From: Alphaproteobacteria bacterium
GTDB lineage: Bacteria; Pseudomonadota; Alphaproteobacteria; CAAHEQ01; UBA3637
Length of the DNA: 64,000 nt
Assembly: GCA_017962565.1 (NCBI GenBank)
Contig: JAGCVC010000005.1
Location: forward strand, 1-64,000
Direction of reading: 5' to 3'
The translations under genes were made by a program, and so were the position numbers. The stretch's first letter is position 1. The number at the start of each line of letters is the position of its first letter. Below, one piece after another: positions 52,850 through 63,914 of the stretch. The notes beneath the pieces were generated by a model. The model saw only the letters and a program-made list of their open reading frames with translations, was not told the origin of the DNA and did not search any database.

Positions 52850-52937
52850 GCGGATATGGCGGAACTGGTAGACGCAACAGACTTAAAATCTGTTGGGACT
52901 TGCTCCCGTGCCGGTTCGATTCCGGCTTTCCGCACCA
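52850..52937 (+). tRNA. tRNA-Leu(UAA), integration site
   Basis: 88 bases with class II long variable arm: GCGGATATGGCGGAACTGGT start, ACAGA/TCTGT anticodon stem with loop CTTAAAA (anticodon TAA), variable arm GGGACTTGCTCCC, T-loop TTCGATT and encoded CCA. One T-T mismatch in the acceptor stem. The adjacent integrase shows that its 3' end served as the attachment site of the following element. Confidence 0.93.
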
Positions 52938-52947
52938 CTTTTGAAAT

Positions 52948-52974
52948 AACCCTTTGGAAACAAAGGGTTTTTTT
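52948..52974 (+). terminator. Rho-independent terminator after tRNA-Leu
   Basis: AACCCTTTG/CAAAGGGTT perfect nine-pair stem capped by a GAAA tetraloop, then seven T. Confidence 0.9.
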
Positions 52975-52998
52975 ATGCCTGAATCACTGGTTTTTAGG

Positions 52999-53033
52999 TG
53001 TAACACCGGGGTGTAACACCGAACTGTAACACC
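52999..53033. repeat. Three TGTAACACC repeats, 13-bp period, in the att-integrase interval
   Basis: TGTAACACC begins at 52999, 53012 and 53025; TGTAACAC recurs at 53271. The 419-base gap between tRNA-Leu and the integrase gene contains these, the terminator and no gene. Short direct repeats here are typical of arm-type binding sites for integrases or excisionases (inference). Confidence 0.6.
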
Positions 53034-53356
53034 AAGCATCAAAAACAAGGTGAATTTTACATCAATTTTGGAACACATTTTTGCAATTTTTTTACAGAAC
53101 TGATTTTGATTTATTTTTGGAATCTTACCCTTTTGGTTTCAAAGGATTTTCCAACCTTTTAGGCATTTGTTTTCTGAACACTTTTGAACAAAAGTTGCTT
53201 TCTGATGACATTTACTCCGAGAAGCACTCTTAAAGATTTCTCCATTTGCTTTTTTTAACAGGTTCATCCATGTAACACAGCATAAAAAATTGACCTTGTA
53301 AGACATTTGAAAAATCCAACAAGGTCAATGTCGTAAAAAGCAGATATGTTCTACCC

Positions 53357-55117
53357 TCATCCGTGCATTACATAACAGTTTCTAAATTCTTTTTTCAGTT
53401 CATTCAGTTCTCGGTTAATTGGATAACTGATTTTGCTGATTTCTTCTTTCATGGTGTTTATGTCCTTTTTATGAGCATAAATTCTTTGACCTACCCCCTG
53501 GTCTGTCCAACCACAAATGGCATTCTGATATTCAGCGGGTATTTTCTTTTCCACAGCCATTGTTTCAAATGTATGTCGGAATGAATGGAATACCTTTGAT
53601 TTATCTGTGATACCAAGTTTATCCAAGTGTCTTGCAAACCAAGATTGAACTGGGCGACCATACATTCCATTTTTGATGCGTTCTAATTCAAAAAGTTTTG
53701 TCTTGCTCTGTTTTCTTCGATAGTTCACATAATGCAAGAAACCCATATCGATTAATTTAGGATGCAATGGAACAATTCTGACAGAACTTCTGTTCTTTAC
53801 TGATTTATCCGGAGCATTGTCATTAATACTGATACAAGGGACACCCTTTTCCTGTACTATGTCATTAACATCTAATTGGCATATTTCGTTCAAACGGCAG
53901 CCATGGTATAAAGCAATTATTGGTATCCAGAACCTTGCTTGGTTTTTTCTTAAATGTGGATTTGGATAAGTTGGTAAGGAAAATATCTTTCTTAATTCAG
54001 AAGTTTCAAAACCAACTCTCTTTAATCCGTCTTTCATTGGCGGAATATCCACAAATTCATTCAAACTGTTTTCAATAATATCTTCCTTCACGGCATATCT
54101 CATGAACTCTTTAAATGTTGTCAGATATTTTTTAACACTCTTCCGGCTCAATGCTTCATCTGGATTATCTGTTAAAATACTCAACAAGGTTTTTCTCTTG
54201 GATATTTTTTCAGTCCAACGTTTAGGAACACGATAAATTCTCGCACATAATGTTCGGCAATCTTGTTTGTTCACATCTTCAATACATTCTCTTTCCATTA
54301 AAGTAAAGCATGCTTGAAGAATAACGCCTATAGTATGGATGCGTTTTTCATCAGTTCCACGCATATCCTTTTTCATCCTTGCAAAACGTTTAAAAAACTT
54401 TTCCCAATGTGTCGCAGACATAGATTTATGGATGCGTTCATCGGTTTTCATATCATCATAAGTTCTTAACAGTGTTATTACTTTAGGATTTGTCGGAGAA
54501 TAATGTTTATCCTTTTGTATTGCCTTTACGGATTGTTTAGCATAATGGTCAAGTTGACTAATATGTGTTGAAAACGCCTTTAACCAATCATATTTTGCAT
54601 CTTTTTCTACAATACCCAATTCAATTTCTTTATCTCGTAATTGATGATAAATCGTCCGCAAAGTTACATTTGCTTTATTTTTATCGACCAATCCCTTCAG
54701 GTAATCCAATATCATATCTTGCATCAGTTTGCGAATATCTGCTTCTTTCTTCCCGTTTGGGAATAAAATGATATTTGCCTCTGATTTATGTTTGCTTTGA
54801 ATTTCTTCAGTATTATTTTCCAAAAATGACTGGATTTGCTCTAACCGATGGAGAAGTAATTTATCCACATCGGTTGCTGTCAATGTTATTTGTTTTTGTT
54901 CATTTACTTTCATAATTATATCCTTAAATAAAGTTAAAAATGCTTGTAAATGAGCAAATTCTACACGCCACTTCTCAATTGCTTCTTGATAGACAGATGT
55001 GTTTAGTGAATACACCAATTCTGTACAACGGGCTAATTCTCTTAGCTCCATTGGTATTTTCAATCTGAAATAAAACAATCTATCTCTCGCAACAAGTCCT
55101 GGGTAATGATATGACAT
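53357..55117 (-). CDS. int: Tyrosine-recombinase integrase (DUF6538-type N-terminus)
   Basis: 586 residues. The N-terminus (LVARDRLFYFRLKIPMEL) matches the DUF6538 domain found on large integrases; a core-binding segment covers about 240-360 and the catalytic domain about 390-570 with R in HGCRLNEICQL, HSFRHTFETMA (HxxR) and the nucleophilic Tyr in GQRIYAHK. Integrates the element at tRNA-Leu. Its 3' end faces the tRNA. Confidence 0.92.
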   Translation of the reverse strand: MSYHYPGLVARDRLFYFRLKIPMELRELARCTELVYSLNTSVYQEAIEKWRVEFAHLQAFLTLFKDIIMKVNEQKQITLTATDVDKLLLHRLEQIQSFLENNTEEIQSKHKSEANIILFPNGKKEADIRKLMQDMILDYLKGLVDKNKANVTLRTIYHQLRDKEIELGIVEKDAKYDWLKAFSTHISQLDHYAKQSVKAIQKDKHYSPTNPKVITLLRTYDDMKTDERIHKSMSATHWEKFFKRFARMKKDMRGTDEKRIHTIGVILQACFTLMERECIEDVNKQDCRTLCARIYRVPKRWTEKISKRKTLLSILTDNPDEALSRKSVKKYLTTFKEFMRYAVKEDIIENSLNEFVDIPPMKDGLKRVGFETSELRKIFSLPTYPNPHLRKNQARFWIPIIALYHGCRLNEICQLDVNDIVQEKGVPCISINDNAPDKSVKNRSSVRIVPLHPKLIDMGFLHYVNYRRKQSKTKLFELERIKNGMYGRPVQSWFARHLDKLGITDKSKVFHSFRHTFETMAVEKKIPAEYQNAICGWTDQGVGQRIYAHKKDINTMKEEISKISYPINRELNELKKEFRNCYVMHG

Positions 55118-57351: not shown

Positions 57352-57625
57352 TGAAACAATTTATATTGATACTCTGGATGGAGTAAAGAAAATACTGAAA
57401 GAATTGCCAGATATAAACACTGAAATTGGTAATGAGGGTGGAACATTGTTAGAACTTGCCTGTGCTTTTACTAATGATATAGAAGTTGTGAAGTATTTGT
57501 TAGAGCATGGAGCAGATATTCACCACACAGACAAATATGGTCGTAATGCCTTTGCTTACGCATGGTTCAACAGAAACCCTTATATGGATGTGTTTATAAA
57601 TGAAGAATTGAAGAAGTATTGGTAA
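57341..57625 (+). CDS. Small ankyrin-repeat protein
   Basis: 94 residues. LLELACAFTNDIEVVKYLLEHGADI followed by HTDKYGRNAFAYAW is a canonical ankyrin repeat. Resembles the preceding protein (FTNDIEVVKYLLEHGAD against FAKDDKVVKYLLKQNAN), so the pair probably arose by duplication. Translationally coupled by the overlap. Confidence 0.75.
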   Translation: MENNETIYIDTLDGVKKILKELPDINTEIGNEGGTLLELACAFTNDIEVVKYLLEHGADIHHTDKYGRNAFAYAWFNRNPYMDVFINEELKKYW

Positions 57626-59294: not shown

Positions 59295-61310
59295 ATGAAA
59301 AGTAATGACAACGAGATTTTGCAACTATTATCGAATAATGATGTAACTTTTTTTATCCCGCCTTATCAAAGAAATTACGAGTGGGATACACAAATGTGTG
59401 AAGCATTTTATAGAGATATTAGAAAGGTAGCTCAGAGTCACGATATAAAACATTTCTTCGGGACTGTAATTTATTACGCTGAACAATCTCAGATACTAGG
59501 CGAACCAAGTAAATATATTCTAGTTGACGGACAACAACGATTAACAACAACTATGCTGTTTTTGATTGCTGCAAGAGATGTAATAGAAGATGCTTCATTA
59601 AAAAATACAATCGATGTAAAATATCTTAGAAATAATAATGTTTCGGGAGACGATGTCGAATATAAAATAAAGCTTAAACAAGTAGAGAGTGATTGGAGCG
59701 CATATAAAAAGCTGGTTCTTGAAGAACCATTAACTGAAACAGAAAAAAAATCTATTGTTTTCTCGAATTATTCATTCTTTAAATCAAAGTTAGAGAAGTT
59801 AGAACAATCCGAAATAAATAGTTTGATTATAAATGGGTTAGTAAACTTTAATATTGTTACGATTCAATTAGAGCCAGAGCGTAATAAATGGGAAAAGCCA
59901 CAAGAAATTTTTGAATCTATGAATTCTCTAGGGAAACCATTATCTCTTGCAGATCTAGTTAGAAATTATTTACTTCTTGGAAAATCTGCCTCTAAACAAA
60001 ATGTGCTATATCATAACTATTGGCTAAGAATTGAAAAGAACTTGGTTGGAGATAATGATAGCTTTTCCGTTTCATCTTTTATAAGAGATTATATGCAATT
60101 AGAAGCTGCCGCTTGCTATAAAAAAGCGACAGAGACGAATTATAAAGAACTTTACCGCAACTTTAAAGATCTGTTCGCTGATGTTGATGCAGAAGAACTT
60201 ATACAGAAATTGGCTCTTTATTCGGAGAATTACTCTGTTCTAGCAGGATACAAATCTTCTGGAAATGATAGAATAGATAAAAAAATTGCAGATTTGAAAA
60301 TTGTGGAAGCATCTGGGTTTTACTCATTCATCCTAGGAATATTGAACTTATATACTGATAAAAAATTAACATCAGAGGACTGTTTGTCAATTTTGGACTC
60401 TATTTTTGTTTATATAACACGACGCCGTATTTTACGTTTAACCCAAGCAGAAAATAAAAATGCTCCACAATTGGTTAAATATTTTGATAAGTTAATAGAA
60501 AGCGCAGATAAAAAAGATAAAATGTTGTCTATACTTTCTGATCAACAATATGCTCTAAGATTACCAAATGATAATGAAATATCTTCATATTTGCTTGGAG
60601 TTGATGCAAATTTCTACAATTTGAGAATTTGTAAATTTATATTTACTTTGATAGAAGAAAATATTACTAAAAGTCGACCAATAAATGATATGAACTTGCA
60701 AATTGAACATATTATGCCTCAAACGTTAAATGAGGGATGGAAAAATATGTTAGGGCAAGAATATCAACGCATTTATGATGGTTATGTCAATAATATAGGA
60801 AACCTTACACTTATTAGGCACAATCAAGAACTTGGAAATAAATCTTTTTCCTATAAGAAAGATGTTTACATTAATAATTCTGGCATGCAAATTTCTAAAA
60901 ATTATATAATTGATCAAAACGTTTGGAGTGAAGATCAAATAAAAGGCAGGGCTAGTTATTTGATCAATTTGTTAGTTGATAAAATTATTCCCGTTTCAGA
61001 GAAATTAAAAACATCTAATAACTATTCAATTGAAAAGAAACAGGGATCTTCTAGATTCTCGTTCGCTGAGGTCGATTTAATAGGTAAAACAATAACCTAT
61101 TTTGATGATGCCATGATTCAAGCAGAAGTAATCGGAGATAAAGAAGTAAGATTTGAGGGGGAAATATGGCATTTATCACCATTAACAAGAGAAATTGAAA
61201 CCAGAAAAAATCGTCGAACAAAATCAGGAGCTTATTGGGGAATAGACAAATGGACGTATCAAGGGAAAACGTTAGAAACCTTAATGCGCGAGCTGACAGA
61301 AGACGAGTAG
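59295..61310 (+). CDS. DUF262-DUF1524 (GmrSD-like) defence nuclease
   Basis: 671 residues. N-terminal DUF262 ParB-like domain with IPPYQRNYEW and YILVDGQQRLTTTMLF (DGQQR motif); the middle is helical; a DUF1524 HNH-type nuclease at about 470-560 shows QIEHIMPQTL, YVNNIGNLTLIRHNQELGNKSF. The last 80 residues (EVRFEGEIWHLSPLTREIE..GIDKWTYQGKTL) look like a RAMA-type DNA-reading domain, tentatively. GmrSD enzymes are single-protein type IV restriction systems acting on modified phage DNA. No methylase adjoins. Own promoter; start behind GAGGAAAA. Confidence 0.85.
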   Translation: MKSNDNEILQLLSNNDVTFFIPPYQRNYEWDTQMCEAFYRDIRKVAQSHDIKHFFGTVIYYAEQSQILGEPSKYILVDGQQRLTTTMLFLIAARDVIEDASLKNTIDVKYLRNNNVSGDDVEYKIKLKQVESDWSAYKKLVLEEPLTETEKKSIVFSNYSFFKSKLEKLEQSEINSLIINGLVNFNIVTIQLEPERNKWEKPQEIFESMNSLGKPLSLADLVRNYLLLGKSASKQNVLYHNYWLRIEKNLVGDNDSFSVSSFIRDYMQLEAAACYKKATETNYKELYRNFKDLFADVDAEELIQKLALYSENYSVLAGYKSSGNDRIDKKIADLKIVEASGFYSFILGILNLYTDKKLTSEDCLSILDSIFVYITRRRILRLTQAENKNAPQLVKYFDKLIESADKKDKMLSILSDQQYALRLPNDNEISSYLLGVDANFYNLRICKFIFTLIEENITKSRPINDMNLQIEHIMPQTLNEGWKNMLGQEYQRIYDGYVNNIGNLTLIRHNQELGNKSFSYKKDVYINNSGMQISKNYIIDQNVWSEDQIKGRASYLINLLVDKIIPVSEKLKTSNNYSIEKKQGSSRFSFAEVDLIGKTITYFDDAMIQAEVIGDKEVRFEGEIWHLSPLTREIETRKNRRTKSGAYWGIDKWTYQGKTLETLMRELTEDE

Positions 61311-61495: not shown

Positions 61496-61526
61496 TTGAA
61501 AAATAGAAAAATAAGTGTATTATAAT
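61496..61526 (+). promoter_or_regulatory. Candidate promoter of the riboswitch-controlled operon
   Basis: TTGAAA (61496-61501) with either TATTAT (61518, spacer 16) or TATAAT (61521-61526, spacer 19). Transcription would start just before the first riboswitch strand at 61532. Confidence 0.5.
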
Positions 61527-61531
61527 AATTG

Positions 61532-61655
61532 CCTATAAAGAGTGTGCGAGAGACAAGCTCAATGACCACACAGCAACCTTCCGAATAGGAAAAGGTGCTA
61601 ATGCTTGAACGATGGGGAAGATAATAACCTATCGTAACTGATGGGTTTATTTTTT
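61532..61655 (+). promoter_or_regulatory. SAM-I (S-box) riboswitch with terminator/antiterminator
   Basis: The aptamer core is intact: P2 GTGTG/CACAC (61542-61546 with 61567-61571) enclosing the kink-turn GAG-AGAC-AAG-CTC-AATGA; then AGCAACC (61572-61578), P3 CTTCC/GGAAAAG, and AAGGTGCTAA. P1 pairs CCTAT (61532-61536) with ATGGG (61612-61616). Downstream a terminator stem AACCTATC/GATGGGTT (61626-61633 with 61640-61647) is followed by TATTTTTTG. GATGGG at 61611-61616 can instead pair with CCTATC at 61628-61633 as antiterminator. Thus SAM binding should favour termination. The downstream operon encodes a small protein and a Y-family polymerase. The 390-base interval 61311-61700 contains only this and its promoter. 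Confidence 0.85.
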
Positions 61656-61700
61656 GCTCTCTTTTAGGTTTGTTTATAATTTAACTTAAAGGAGATTAAA

Positions 61701-61940
61701 ATGCAAAAATTGTTCGATTACTGCAAAAAACGTGAAGCTGAGATATACAAGCAAATCGCTACTATGAATTTGCCGATAACAGTTAAAGCGGCAATGTACA
61801 CTTGTAAAACAAGAGAGATGGACAGATTAATAAAACAATCATCTTTCCCCTTGACAACTAAAACACCCGTCATTAAAATGAGAACAAAAAGAGAACATTA
61901 TAATGACGATGCTAAAGGAACACATTATTGCATTAGTTGA
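61701..61940 (+). CDS. Small protein, unknown, first gene of the SAM-controlled operon
   Basis: 79 residues, basic and helical at the N-terminus (MQKLFDYCKKREAEIYKQIA). AAAGGAGA is an excellent ribosome-binding site. Overlaps the polymerase gene by 38 bases, so the polymerase is probably translated by coupling; its own site is weak. No family recognised; not UmuD-like (no S24 peptidase motifs). Confidence 0.65.
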   Translation: MQKLFDYCKKREAEIYKQIATMNLPITVKAAMYTCKTREMDRLIKQSSFPLTTKTPVIKMRTKREHYNDDAKGTHYCIS

Positions 61941-63072
61941 TTGTGACTGCTTTTTTGTCAGTTGTGAACGAGTGGATAATCCTAAATTAAATGGAAAACC
62001 CGTGTGTGTTACAACAGGTGCAAGCAGCAAAGGAATTGTTGTGTCTCGTTCTAATGAAGCCAAAGCACTTGGTATCAAAATGGGTGCCCCTATGTTTCAA
62101 TTGGAAGGAAAGTATAACAATGTGCATTACATTCCTGCACGACATACACGTTATGGAGAGATTTCTAAGCAGGTTATGGATGCCTTGCGGGAGTTTACAC
62201 CTGATGTTGAAGAAGTATCAGTAGATGAAGCATACCTTGATTTAACAGGAATGGACAAGATGTACGGGATGACTTATGAAGATTTGGTCAGAAAGATACG
62301 CTCTACCGTTTTAGAGAAAACAAAAGTTCCTGTGTCAATCGGTTTATCTACCAGCAAAACATTAGCAAAACTTGCAAGTGACAAAGCCAAAAAGACAGGT
62401 GGCATCTTTATTATTCCACCAGACAATGTAATGGAAATCTTAAAAGGCATTGAATTGGAAGAAATCTGCGGCATCAACCATCAAACAGCTATTAACTTTT
62501 GGAAAAAAGGTGTTTACACTTTGGAAGATTTTTTATCCAAAAAACCTTGTTGGGTGCGTCAGGCATTTGGCATCAATGGGGAAAGATTACGGTATGAGTT
62601 GGCTGGAACATCTGTATCTCCCGTTAATCCTGTAGAAGAAGCCCCACAATCCATACAGGATACAAGGGCTTTAGAAGATTTCACGGACAATTTGGCTGTT
62701 TTGGAAAGCACTTTGCCGTATCATGTCCACAGAGCATCTCGGAAGTTGCGTAAATGGGATGGATATTGTGGCGTTCTGTCGGTAATGCTGCGGACAAAGG
62801 ATTTTAAGGTCGTTGAAACAGAAATCAAACTGGACAAGCCAACCAATTCAGAACAAACACTTTTGCGCAAATCACATGAGTTAATCAAAGTAATTTACAA
62901 ACCAAGGACTTTATATCGTTCTGTTGGGATTACATTACGGAATCTGGTATTTGGAAAAGTAGAGCAACAATCACTTTTTGAAGAAATTGAACGAGAAGAT
63001 GACAAACTTTCTCACCTGATAGACGATTTGGAAAAGAAATACGGCAAACAAGTCGTGAAATTGGGTGGGTAA
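61903..63072 (+). CDS. Y-family DNA polymerase (UmuC/DinB-like)
   Basis: 389 residues. Catalytic palm motifs: ALVDCDCFFVSCERV with the metal-binding Asp and steric-gate Phe, VSRSNEAKALGIKMGAP, and VSVDEAYLDLTG with the DE pair. SIGLSTSKTLAKLASDKAK follows, then a helix-hairpin-helix thumb and a C-terminal little finger, ending near QQSLFEE, a clamp-binding motif. Translesion synthesis, error-prone. Closer to the mobile-element UmuC branch than to DinB by the VSCERV segment. An alternative start is the Met two codons on. Confidence 0.92.
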   Translation: MTMLKEHIIALVDCDCFFVSCERVDNPKLNGKPVCVTTGASSKGIVVSRSNEAKALGIKMGAPMFQLEGKYNNVHYIPARHTRYGEISKQVMDALREFTPDVEEVSVDEAYLDLTGMDKMYGMTYEDLVRKIRSTVLEKTKVPVSIGLSTSKTLAKLASDKAKKTGGIFIIPPDNVMEILKGIELEEICGINHQTAINFWKKGVYTLEDFLSKKPCWVRQAFGINGERLRYELAGTSVSPVNPVEEAPQSIQDTRALEDFTDNLAVLESTLPYHVHRASRKLRKWDGYCGVLSVMLRTKDFKVVETEIKLDKPTNSEQTLLRKSHELIKVIYKPRTLYRSVGITLRNLVFGKVEQQSLFEEIEREDDKLSHLIDDLEKKYGKQVVKLGG

Positions 63073-63137: not shown

Positions 63138-63914
63138 ATGGATAAAGAAAACAAAAATATTAATTCGTTAGTAAATGCACATAAAAAATTATTAGATGAT
63201 TTAATTATGCACGGAAAAACAATTAAATTACAATTCGACACTAATGAAAATAAAATTTATTCTGTATTTTTAGAACGACAAATATCATTGGCAAAATCAA
63301 TTGAAATTCTATTGAGAAAAAAACAATTCTATGATGCTTGTATTTTAGCATCATCTTTAGCTGAAAACTTCATTTTAGTAAAATATTTGATTGTGTATGA
63401 AAAAATAGATGATTTTGTCGATTTCCATTGTATAGAAACATTTCCAATGATTAAACAAAATCCGAAATTGCAACAAGAAGCTTTAGAAGTGATAGAAACG
63501 CATAACCTAAGAAGATTTCTAAAACAAAGGAAGACAAAGGGAAAAATTGATTTGTTGGATTCCAATAATTACATCGCTCCGTGGAAAAATATTCAAGCAA
63601 TGGTAGACCAAATTGTAAAAAAAGGAGATGAGGATATTAAATCTTTAAAGTTTAACTACGATATACTATGCTCCTATAAACATTCTGGGCCTTATACTTT
63701 ACTCTCCAGAAAATTTGGGGCTCCTCCGGAAAATGATGCGATGATTGTTTTAGGAATAACATGTATGGTTCTTTTACATCAATTTGCTGTAGTAGCACAG
63801 AATCCAAATAGTATTTTCTTTCAAAAACAAGTAAAATTAAAAGAAAAATTTGAACATTTGATGGAAACTGTTAAACAATTTGAAGAAAACAGAAAAAAAG
63901 AACATTTTTCTTGA
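63138..63914 (+). CDS. Helical protein, DUF5677-like (tentative)
   Basis: 258 residues, almost entirely helical. DACILASSLAENFILVKYLIVYE and DILCSYKHSGPYTL resemble the DUF5677 family of HEPN-like proteins found among defence and mobile genes; the match is by eye. No RxxxxH-type catalytic motif is obvious. Follows the polymerase gene by 65 bases. Confidence 0.5.
   Translation: MDKENKNINSLVNAHKKLLDDLIMHGKTIKLQFDTNENKIYSVFLERQISLAKSIEILLRKKQFYDACILASSLAENFILVKYLIVYEKIDDFVDFHCIETFPMIKQNPKLQQEALEVIETHNLRRFLKQRKTKGKIDLLDSNNYIAPWKNIQAMVDQIVKKGDEDIKSLKFNYDILCSYKHSGPYTLLSRKFGAPPENDAMIVLGITCMVLLHQFAVVAQNPNSIFFQKQVKLKEKFEHLMETVKQFEENRKKEHFS

What the first reader, a model, noticed from the sequence alone, without database searches (positions are those of the whole stretch)
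61496..63072. SAM-I riboswitch in front of a mobile Y-family polymerase operon
The sequence shows a complete S-box core plus the repeated CCTAT/GATGGG pairs that let P1, antiterminator and terminator compete. SAM-I normally controls methionine/cysteine genes, mostly in Firmicutes, and is rare in alphaproteobacteria, which typically use SAM-II or SAM-V. Here it precedes a small unknown protein and an error-prone polymerase on an element. If real, low SAM (starvation, heavy methylation, or a phage SAM lyase) would switch on mutagenic synthesis, a regulation I do not know to be described.
Basis: partly seen in the sequence, partly recalled or inferred. Interest (0 to 1): 0.8.

Follow-up and report, generated by a model that had tools for sequence, protein, structure and literature searches.

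The report
SAM riboswitch beside an SOS-controlled polymerase
The RNA switch that senses S-adenosylmethionine is real and belongs to a scattered gut-bacterial group with an apparent two-stage (transcription plus translation) off-switch, but the error-prone DNA polymerase behind it carries its own DNA-damage (SOS) promoter, so the proposed SAM control of mutagenesis is not supported as its main regulation.

Summary
Observation confirmed: a SAM-I aptamer lies at 61530-61618 (+) (RF00162, 65.4 bits, cut-off 44.4), with overlapping P1, antiterminator and terminator, and it is the only one in this 1.34 Mb gut alphaproteobacterial genome. The interpretation does not hold as stated. The Y-family polymerase has its own promoter (TTGACA-17-TAAAAT, 61851-61879) and an alphaproteobacterial LexA box (GAAC-N7-GAAC, 61882-61896) just before its start codon. 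That box sits before 10 of 17 homologues (0.09% in shuffles) and before lexA itself. Four of the five closest homologues (76-84% identity) have it exactly or nearly but lack the RNA. The RNA's direct target is a different, variable small gene. One relative (G013) also carries the RNA upstream of the polymerase, so some read-through cannot be excluded. Following the RNA outward gave the more novel result: about 75 relatives in gut Clostridia, Erysipelotrichia, Gastranaerophilales, Elusimicrobia, Alphaproteobacteria and phages share a P4-less SAM-I aptamer and a second control layer. Beyond the terminator, a CTCTTTNTAGG strand pairs either with the Shine-Dalgarno (strong covariation, z = -12.9) or with the aptamer's own 5' strand (z = -3.9), suggesting a transcription-plus-translation off-switch with a low-SAM latch. 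All mechanism is inferred from sequence.

The parts
61496..61523 (+). promoter-like site of the riboswitch transcript (TTGAAA-16-TATTAT)
   Evidence: consensus scan, 10 of 12; weak on its own
61530..61618 (+). SAM-I aptamer without P4; pseudoknot CAAGC 61554-61558 / GCTTG 61603-61607
   Evidence: RF00162 65.4 bits; core columns including J1/2 AAGAG, GCAACC and GGTGC invariant in 41 relatives
61609..61635 (+). antiterminator ACGATGGG/CCTATCGT
   Evidence: sequence; predicted fold
61626..61655 (+). intrinsic terminator AACCTATC..GATGGGTT followed by TATTTTTT
   Evidence: terminator scan, 9 pairs
61532..61542 (+). aptamer 5' strand CCTATAAAGAG (P1 5' side plus J1/2), one partner of the proposed latch helix
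   Evidence: complementary to 61657-61668; own-versus-swapped pairing z -3.9 over relatives
61657..61668 (+). switch strand CTCTCTTTTAGG after the terminator; pairs with the Shine-Dalgarno or with the aptamer 5' strand
   Evidence: covariation tests
61688..61695 (+). Shine-Dalgarno AAAGGAGA, sequestered by the switch strand in the predicted OFF state
   Evidence: SD stem z -12.9 over 88 relatives; fold of the window
61701..61940 (+). 79-aa ORF, direct target of the riboswitch; first ~40 aa related to the N-terminus of L076's M20 deacylase and to a 64-aa ORF elsewhere in this genome; 3' part runs over the polymerase promoter
61851..61879 (+). polymerase promoter TTGACA-17-TAAAAT
   Evidence: consensus scan, 11 of 12; same arrangement in five homologues
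61882..61896 (+). LexA (SOS) box GAACAAAAAGAGAAC
   Evidence: exact in 10 of 17 homologues versus 0.09% of shuffles; same motif 24 nt before lexA
61903..63072 (+). Y-family (UmuC-like) DNA polymerase, 389 aa
   Evidence: PF00817 E 3.7e-43, PF11799 E 1.2e-14

Best explanation
Two regulatory units lie side by side. Unit 1 is a P4-less SAM-I riboswitch acting as an OFF switch for the small gene directly behind it. With SAM, P1 is held and the terminator forms; in any read-through RNA the CTCTCTTTT strand pairs with AAAGGAGA and hides the Shine-Dalgarno. Without SAM, the P1 3' strand forms the antiterminator. The freed 5' strand CCTATAAAGAG then captures CTCTCTTTTAGG, which releases the Shine-Dalgarno and locks the aptamer open. 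Unit 2 is the Y-family polymerase with its own promoter and LexA box, induced by DNA damage. The two sit together because of island shuffling, with at most some read-through from unit 1 into unit 2. Shown by sequence comparison: the aptamer, terminator, covarying SD stem, conserved complementarity of the 5' strand, and the conserved SOS box. Inferred: SAM binding, the switching, LexA binding, and the absence of a major SAM effect on the polymerase.
For: Aptamer. Polymerase: the five closest homologues are G026, G004, G035, G013 and G002 (84, 83, 79, 77, 76%). Four carry an exact GAAC-N7-GAAC box and G002 a near match, all with TTGAC[AT]-17-TAAAAT, about 20 nt before the start; four of the five have no SAM-I RNA. 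LexA is present with the same box 24 nt upstream of its start. The RNA precedes unrelated genes elsewhere. SD stem: own pairing -12.1 versus -9.0 kcal/mol for swapped partners, 0 of 20000 permutations; flanks only, 35 distinct stems, -1.96 versus -0.57, 0 of 20000. Latch helix: own -12.08 versus -11.57, 0 of 20000 permutations. In predicted folds the SD is paired in 92% of positions in state A and 27% in state B; B is on average 3.7 kcal/mol more stable without ligand; in the window A and B are nearly equal, -45.9 and -46.1.
Against: One other genome, G013, has the RNA about 0.7 kb upstream of the same polymerase, which chance placement does not explain and which allows co-regulation. GAAC-N7-GAAC is not enriched genome-wide over its control (27 versus 24). 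Permutation tests do not fully remove shared ancestry. Most sequences in the set were found with a pattern that required CTCY..TRGG, so that motif itself is partly ascertained, though hits found without it also mostly carry it. The latch helix signal is modest. No experiment was done.
Confidence: 0.75

Rival explanations
1. One reading: low SAM switches on the polymerase through the riboswitch, as one operon.
For: Same strand, no terminator seen between the 79-aa ORF and the polymerase, ORFs overlap by 38 nt; a second genome (G013) keeps RNA and polymerase in the same order around a different small gene.
Against: Own promoter and SOS box directly before the polymerase, conserved in homologues without the RNA; the other relatives of the RNA examined are not next to this polymerase.
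Confidence: 0.15
2. The RNA in this window is a relic: its original gene was cut short when the polymerase cassette arrived, and it now drives only a meaningless ORF.
For: Only about 40 aa of the 79-aa ORF have relatives, including the N-terminus of the M20 deacylase behind the RNA in L076; the rest overlaps the polymerase promoter.
Against: The RNA itself is undamaged and scores high; a 64-aa stand-alone relative exists in the same genome, so a short protein may be normal.
Confidence: 0.25
3. The CTCT..TAGG strand is only an SD-sequestering element or RNA-processing site; its fit to the aptamer 5' strand is a by-product of similarity to P1.
For: SD-stem covariation is far stronger than latch covariation; TAGG resembles the P1 3' strand.
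Against: Complementarity extends through J1/2 (AAAGAG/CTCTTT) and follows changes in the 5' strand, e.g. CCAT with ATGG (L003, L084) and CCTATGAAGAG with CTCTTCATGGG (L113).
Confidence: 0.2

Closest known systems
SAM-I (S-box) riboswitch, RF00162
   Same: Aptamer core, pseudoknot, terminator/antiterminator OFF logic
   Different: No P4; a further SD-sequestering strand that can also capture the aptamer 5' strand; genes not methionine related. Four Clostridia genomes checked carry a second, weaker SAM-I hit, before metK in three of them.
Dual transcription and translation attenuation platforms (Barrick and Breaker 2007, PMC2258182)
   Same: Terminator plus control of ribosome access in one leader
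   Different: [quoted passage not shown] here it is a separate hairpin after the terminator with a long-range competing helix
SAM-I Xcc of Xanthomonas (PMC7270179)
   Same: Anti-SD strand under SAM control in a proteobacterium
   Different: No intrinsic terminator; met operon; anti-SD bound by tRNA(fMet) rather than the aptamer 5' strand
LexA-controlled Y-family (UmuC-type) polymerases
   Same: Domain content, SOS box next to the start codon; alphaproteobacterial motif GTTC-N7-GTTC (PMC3323433)
   Different: A SAM-I leader transcript points into it from upstream

Membership tests
SAM-I riboswitch (RF00162) | Covariance-model score above the gathering cut-off | tested here: met
   65.4 versus 44.4 bits
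SAM-I riboswitch (RF00162) | Conserved core around the SAM pocket: J1/2 AAGAG, GCAACC, GGTGC, AT of P1 3' strand | tested here: met
   present in the window and invariant in 41 relatives; which positions contact SAM is from own knowledge
SAM-I riboswitch (RF00162) | Pseudoknot between L2 and the strand after P3 | tested here: met
   CAAGC 61554-61558 / GCTTG 61603-61607 by sequence
SAM-I riboswitch (RF00162) | P4 hairpin (in the consensus but variable, not taken as defining) | tested here: not met
   17 consensus positions deleted; other P4-less members score up to 73.9 bits
SAM-I riboswitch (RF00162) | Binds SAM and terminates transcription on binding | not testable with these tools
   needs in-line probing and in vitro transcription
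SAM-I/IV riboswitch (RF01725) | Score above the gathering cut-off | tested here: not met
   29.6 versus 41.1 bits
Spermidine variant of SAM-I (PMC10853860) | Changes in J1/2 and the P3 internal loop; polyamine genes behind it | tested here: not met
   J1/2 and P3 core are of the SAM-I type; no polyamine gene behind it. The variant's alignment itself was not compared.
LexA-regulated Y-family polymerase | IMS and IMS_C domains | tested here: met
LexA-regulated Y-family polymerase | LexA box at the promoter, conserved in homologues | tested here: met
LexA-regulated Y-family polymerase | LexA binding and induction by DNA damage | not testable with these tools
   experiment needed

The most novel reading that the evidence does not exclude
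An undescribed, widely scattered subgroup of SAM-I riboswitches in gut bacteria and their phages carries a two-stage OFF switch with a self-latching ON state (the aptamer's own 5' strand captures the anti-Shine-Dalgarno strand). It is used almost entirely for orphan small genes, including a ~100-aa family for which no Pfam, NCBIfam or PDB relative was found.
Probability: 0.55. Interest if true: 0.62.

Novelty: new variant of a known kind. Interest (0 to 1): 0.5.

Why it matters
It removes a tempting but unsupported link between SAM starvation and mutagenesis here, replacing it with ordinary SOS control. It also points to a conserved SAM-I design in which transcription and translation would be checked by the same ligand, with a latch on the ON state, attached to small genes of unknown function in gut bacteria. 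That makes the question of what these genes do when SAM is low directly testable, and gives a defined RNA for studying layered riboswitch control.

Tried and rejected
SAM-I/IV: below cut-off. Close polymerase relatives in IMG/VR: none; phages and plasmids give only distant ones, best about 35%. First tail pattern had one N too many and found nothing, corrected. tRNA-Leu direct repeat as the far att site: none convincing on the contig. Functional names for downstream genes: 10 of them without Pfam hits at E 0.01; of 51, only FGase (3), MORN_2 (2), Sel1 and M20; few PHROGs matches, none named; no significant PDB hit for the ~100-aa family, best E 0.93. A consistent mobile-element neighbourhood around the RNA class: not found, neighbours are mixed and partly ordinary chromosomal genes, so I do not call the class mobile. 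GAAC-N7-GAAC counts genome-wide are no higher than the control; only the position at start codons is informative. Literature searches found no description of this RNA subgroup; the library holds open-licence papers only.

Full report
OBSERVATION. The window holds one full-length SAM-I aptamer at 61530-61618 (+), 65.4 bits against a cut-off of 44.4, the only one in the genome. The competing SAM-I/IV model scores 29.6, below its cut-off. SAM-I is rare in the class: 8 of 385 genomes match, in line with PMC2258182, which calls alphaproteobacteria almost devoid of it.

THE POLYMERASE IS ITS OWN UNIT. The 389-aa ORF is a Y-family polymerase. Directly before it lie TTGACA-17-TAAAAT (61851-61879) and GAACAAAAAGAGAAC (61882-61896). 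GAAC-N7-GAAC is the reverse complement of GTTC-N7-GTTC, the alphaproteobacterial LexA motif given in PMC3323433. The genome has LexA with the same motif 24 nt before its start. Among 17 polymerase homologues in the family, the window's own included, 10 have an exact box near the start against 0.09% of shuffled upstream regions, down to about 30% identity. The five closest homologues (76-84%) all have the TTGAC[AT]-17-TAAAAT promoter and an exact or near box; four of them have no SAM-I RNA by RF00162 or by my own model. Genome-wide the motif is not enriched, so the argument rests on position and conservation.

THE GENE BEHIND THE RNA. The 79-aa ORF has relatives only for its first ~40 aa: the N-terminus of an M20 deacylase that follows the same RNA in L076 (39% over 38 aa), and a 64-aa ORF elsewhere in this genome. 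Its 3' part is the polymerase promoter read as protein. In G013 the RNA is followed by a different 110-aa ORF, further short reading frames, and then the polymerase with its own promoter and box. So the RNA and polymerase are neighbours in two genomes, the gene between them differs, and a minor read-through input cannot be ruled out.

THE RNA CLASS. Pattern scans found 14 viral contigs and 90 GTDB stretches; about 75 of the 90 are this type, recognised by AAGAG..GAG[AG]GACAAGC and no P4. Hosts include Clostridia, Erysipelotrichia, Gastranaerophilales, Elusimicrobium and gut alphaproteobacteria. Phage records also carry it. After the terminator comes CTCTTTNTAGG and then the Shine-Dalgarno. SD stem: own partners -12.1 kcal/mol against -9.0 for swapped ones, z -12.9, none of 20000 permutations; using only the flanks of 35 distinct stems, -1.96 against -0.57, none of 20000. 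Latch helix with the aptamer 5' strand: -12.08 against -11.57, z -3.9, none of 20000. Permutations do not remove shared ancestry. Ascertainment: the scans required CTCY..TRGG. Without that requirement, 10 of 11 viral hits plus L002, L003, L004 and L005 carry the strand, as judged by reading; the exception, L016, precedes metK. In an order-wide search with an aptamer-only model, most of the six readable class members have it, with varied fit, and L186 lacks it.

MECHANISM. Predicted folds give two exclusive states: A (aptamer, terminator, hidden SD) and B (antiterminator, latch helix, open SD). The SD is paired in 92% of positions in A and 27% in B; B is favoured by 3.7 kcal/mol on average without ligand; in this window they are equal within 0.2. 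In this computation state A was folded freely in two parts, so for some sequences, the window among them, its first part does not show the textbook P1. SAM would be expected to stabilise A. Dual platforms are a known category (PMC2258182); the separate post-terminator hairpin and the latch are, as far as the searched papers show, undescribed.

GENES CONTROLLED. First genes are diverse; 31 could be aligned as a loose ~100-aa family. Few have names: FGase in 3 of 51, M20 in 1, MORN_2 in 2, Sel1 in 1. FGase and M20 deacylases could in principle release methionine from N-formyl or N-acetyl methionine, which would make sense under SAM control; this is inference from own knowledge. Neighbourhoods are mixed. 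In four Clostridia genomes checked, a second, weaker SAM-I hit exists; three of these precede metK.

VERDICT. Real riboswitch, doubtful target: ordinary SOS control explains the polymerase, and the new element is a SAM-I variant with a second control layer.

Noticed in passing
59295-61310: GmrSD-type (type IV) restriction endonuclease gene directly upstream of the riboswitch
   Followed up: partly
contig C15 63972-72024 (L019): Downstream of the window's polymerase lies what looks like a type I restriction-modification locus (HsdM-, HsdS- and HsdR-like ORFs, named by eye, no family search)
   Followed up: no
63138-63914: DUF5677 protein between the polymerase and the restriction locus
   Followed up: no
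52850-55117: tRNA-Leu followed by a tyrosine integrase (DUF6538 + Phage_integrase); no convincing repeat of the tRNA end was found further along the contig
   Followed up: partly
57441-57455: A second GAAC-N7-GAAC site in the window, not at a start codon; the count in the window is as expected by chance
   Followed up: partly
L171 (G008): A fourth genome of the family has the same RNA, cut by a contig end, before a 156-aa gene resembling those in L018 and L055
   Followed up: partly
L038, L095, L104, L076: Same RNA before N-formylglutamate amidohydrolase-family and M20 deacylase genes, possibly methionine salvage
   Followed up: partly
L214: 64-aa ORF with the IKAAAYTC motif of the 79-aa ORF, without a riboswitch noticed in front
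   Followed up: partly
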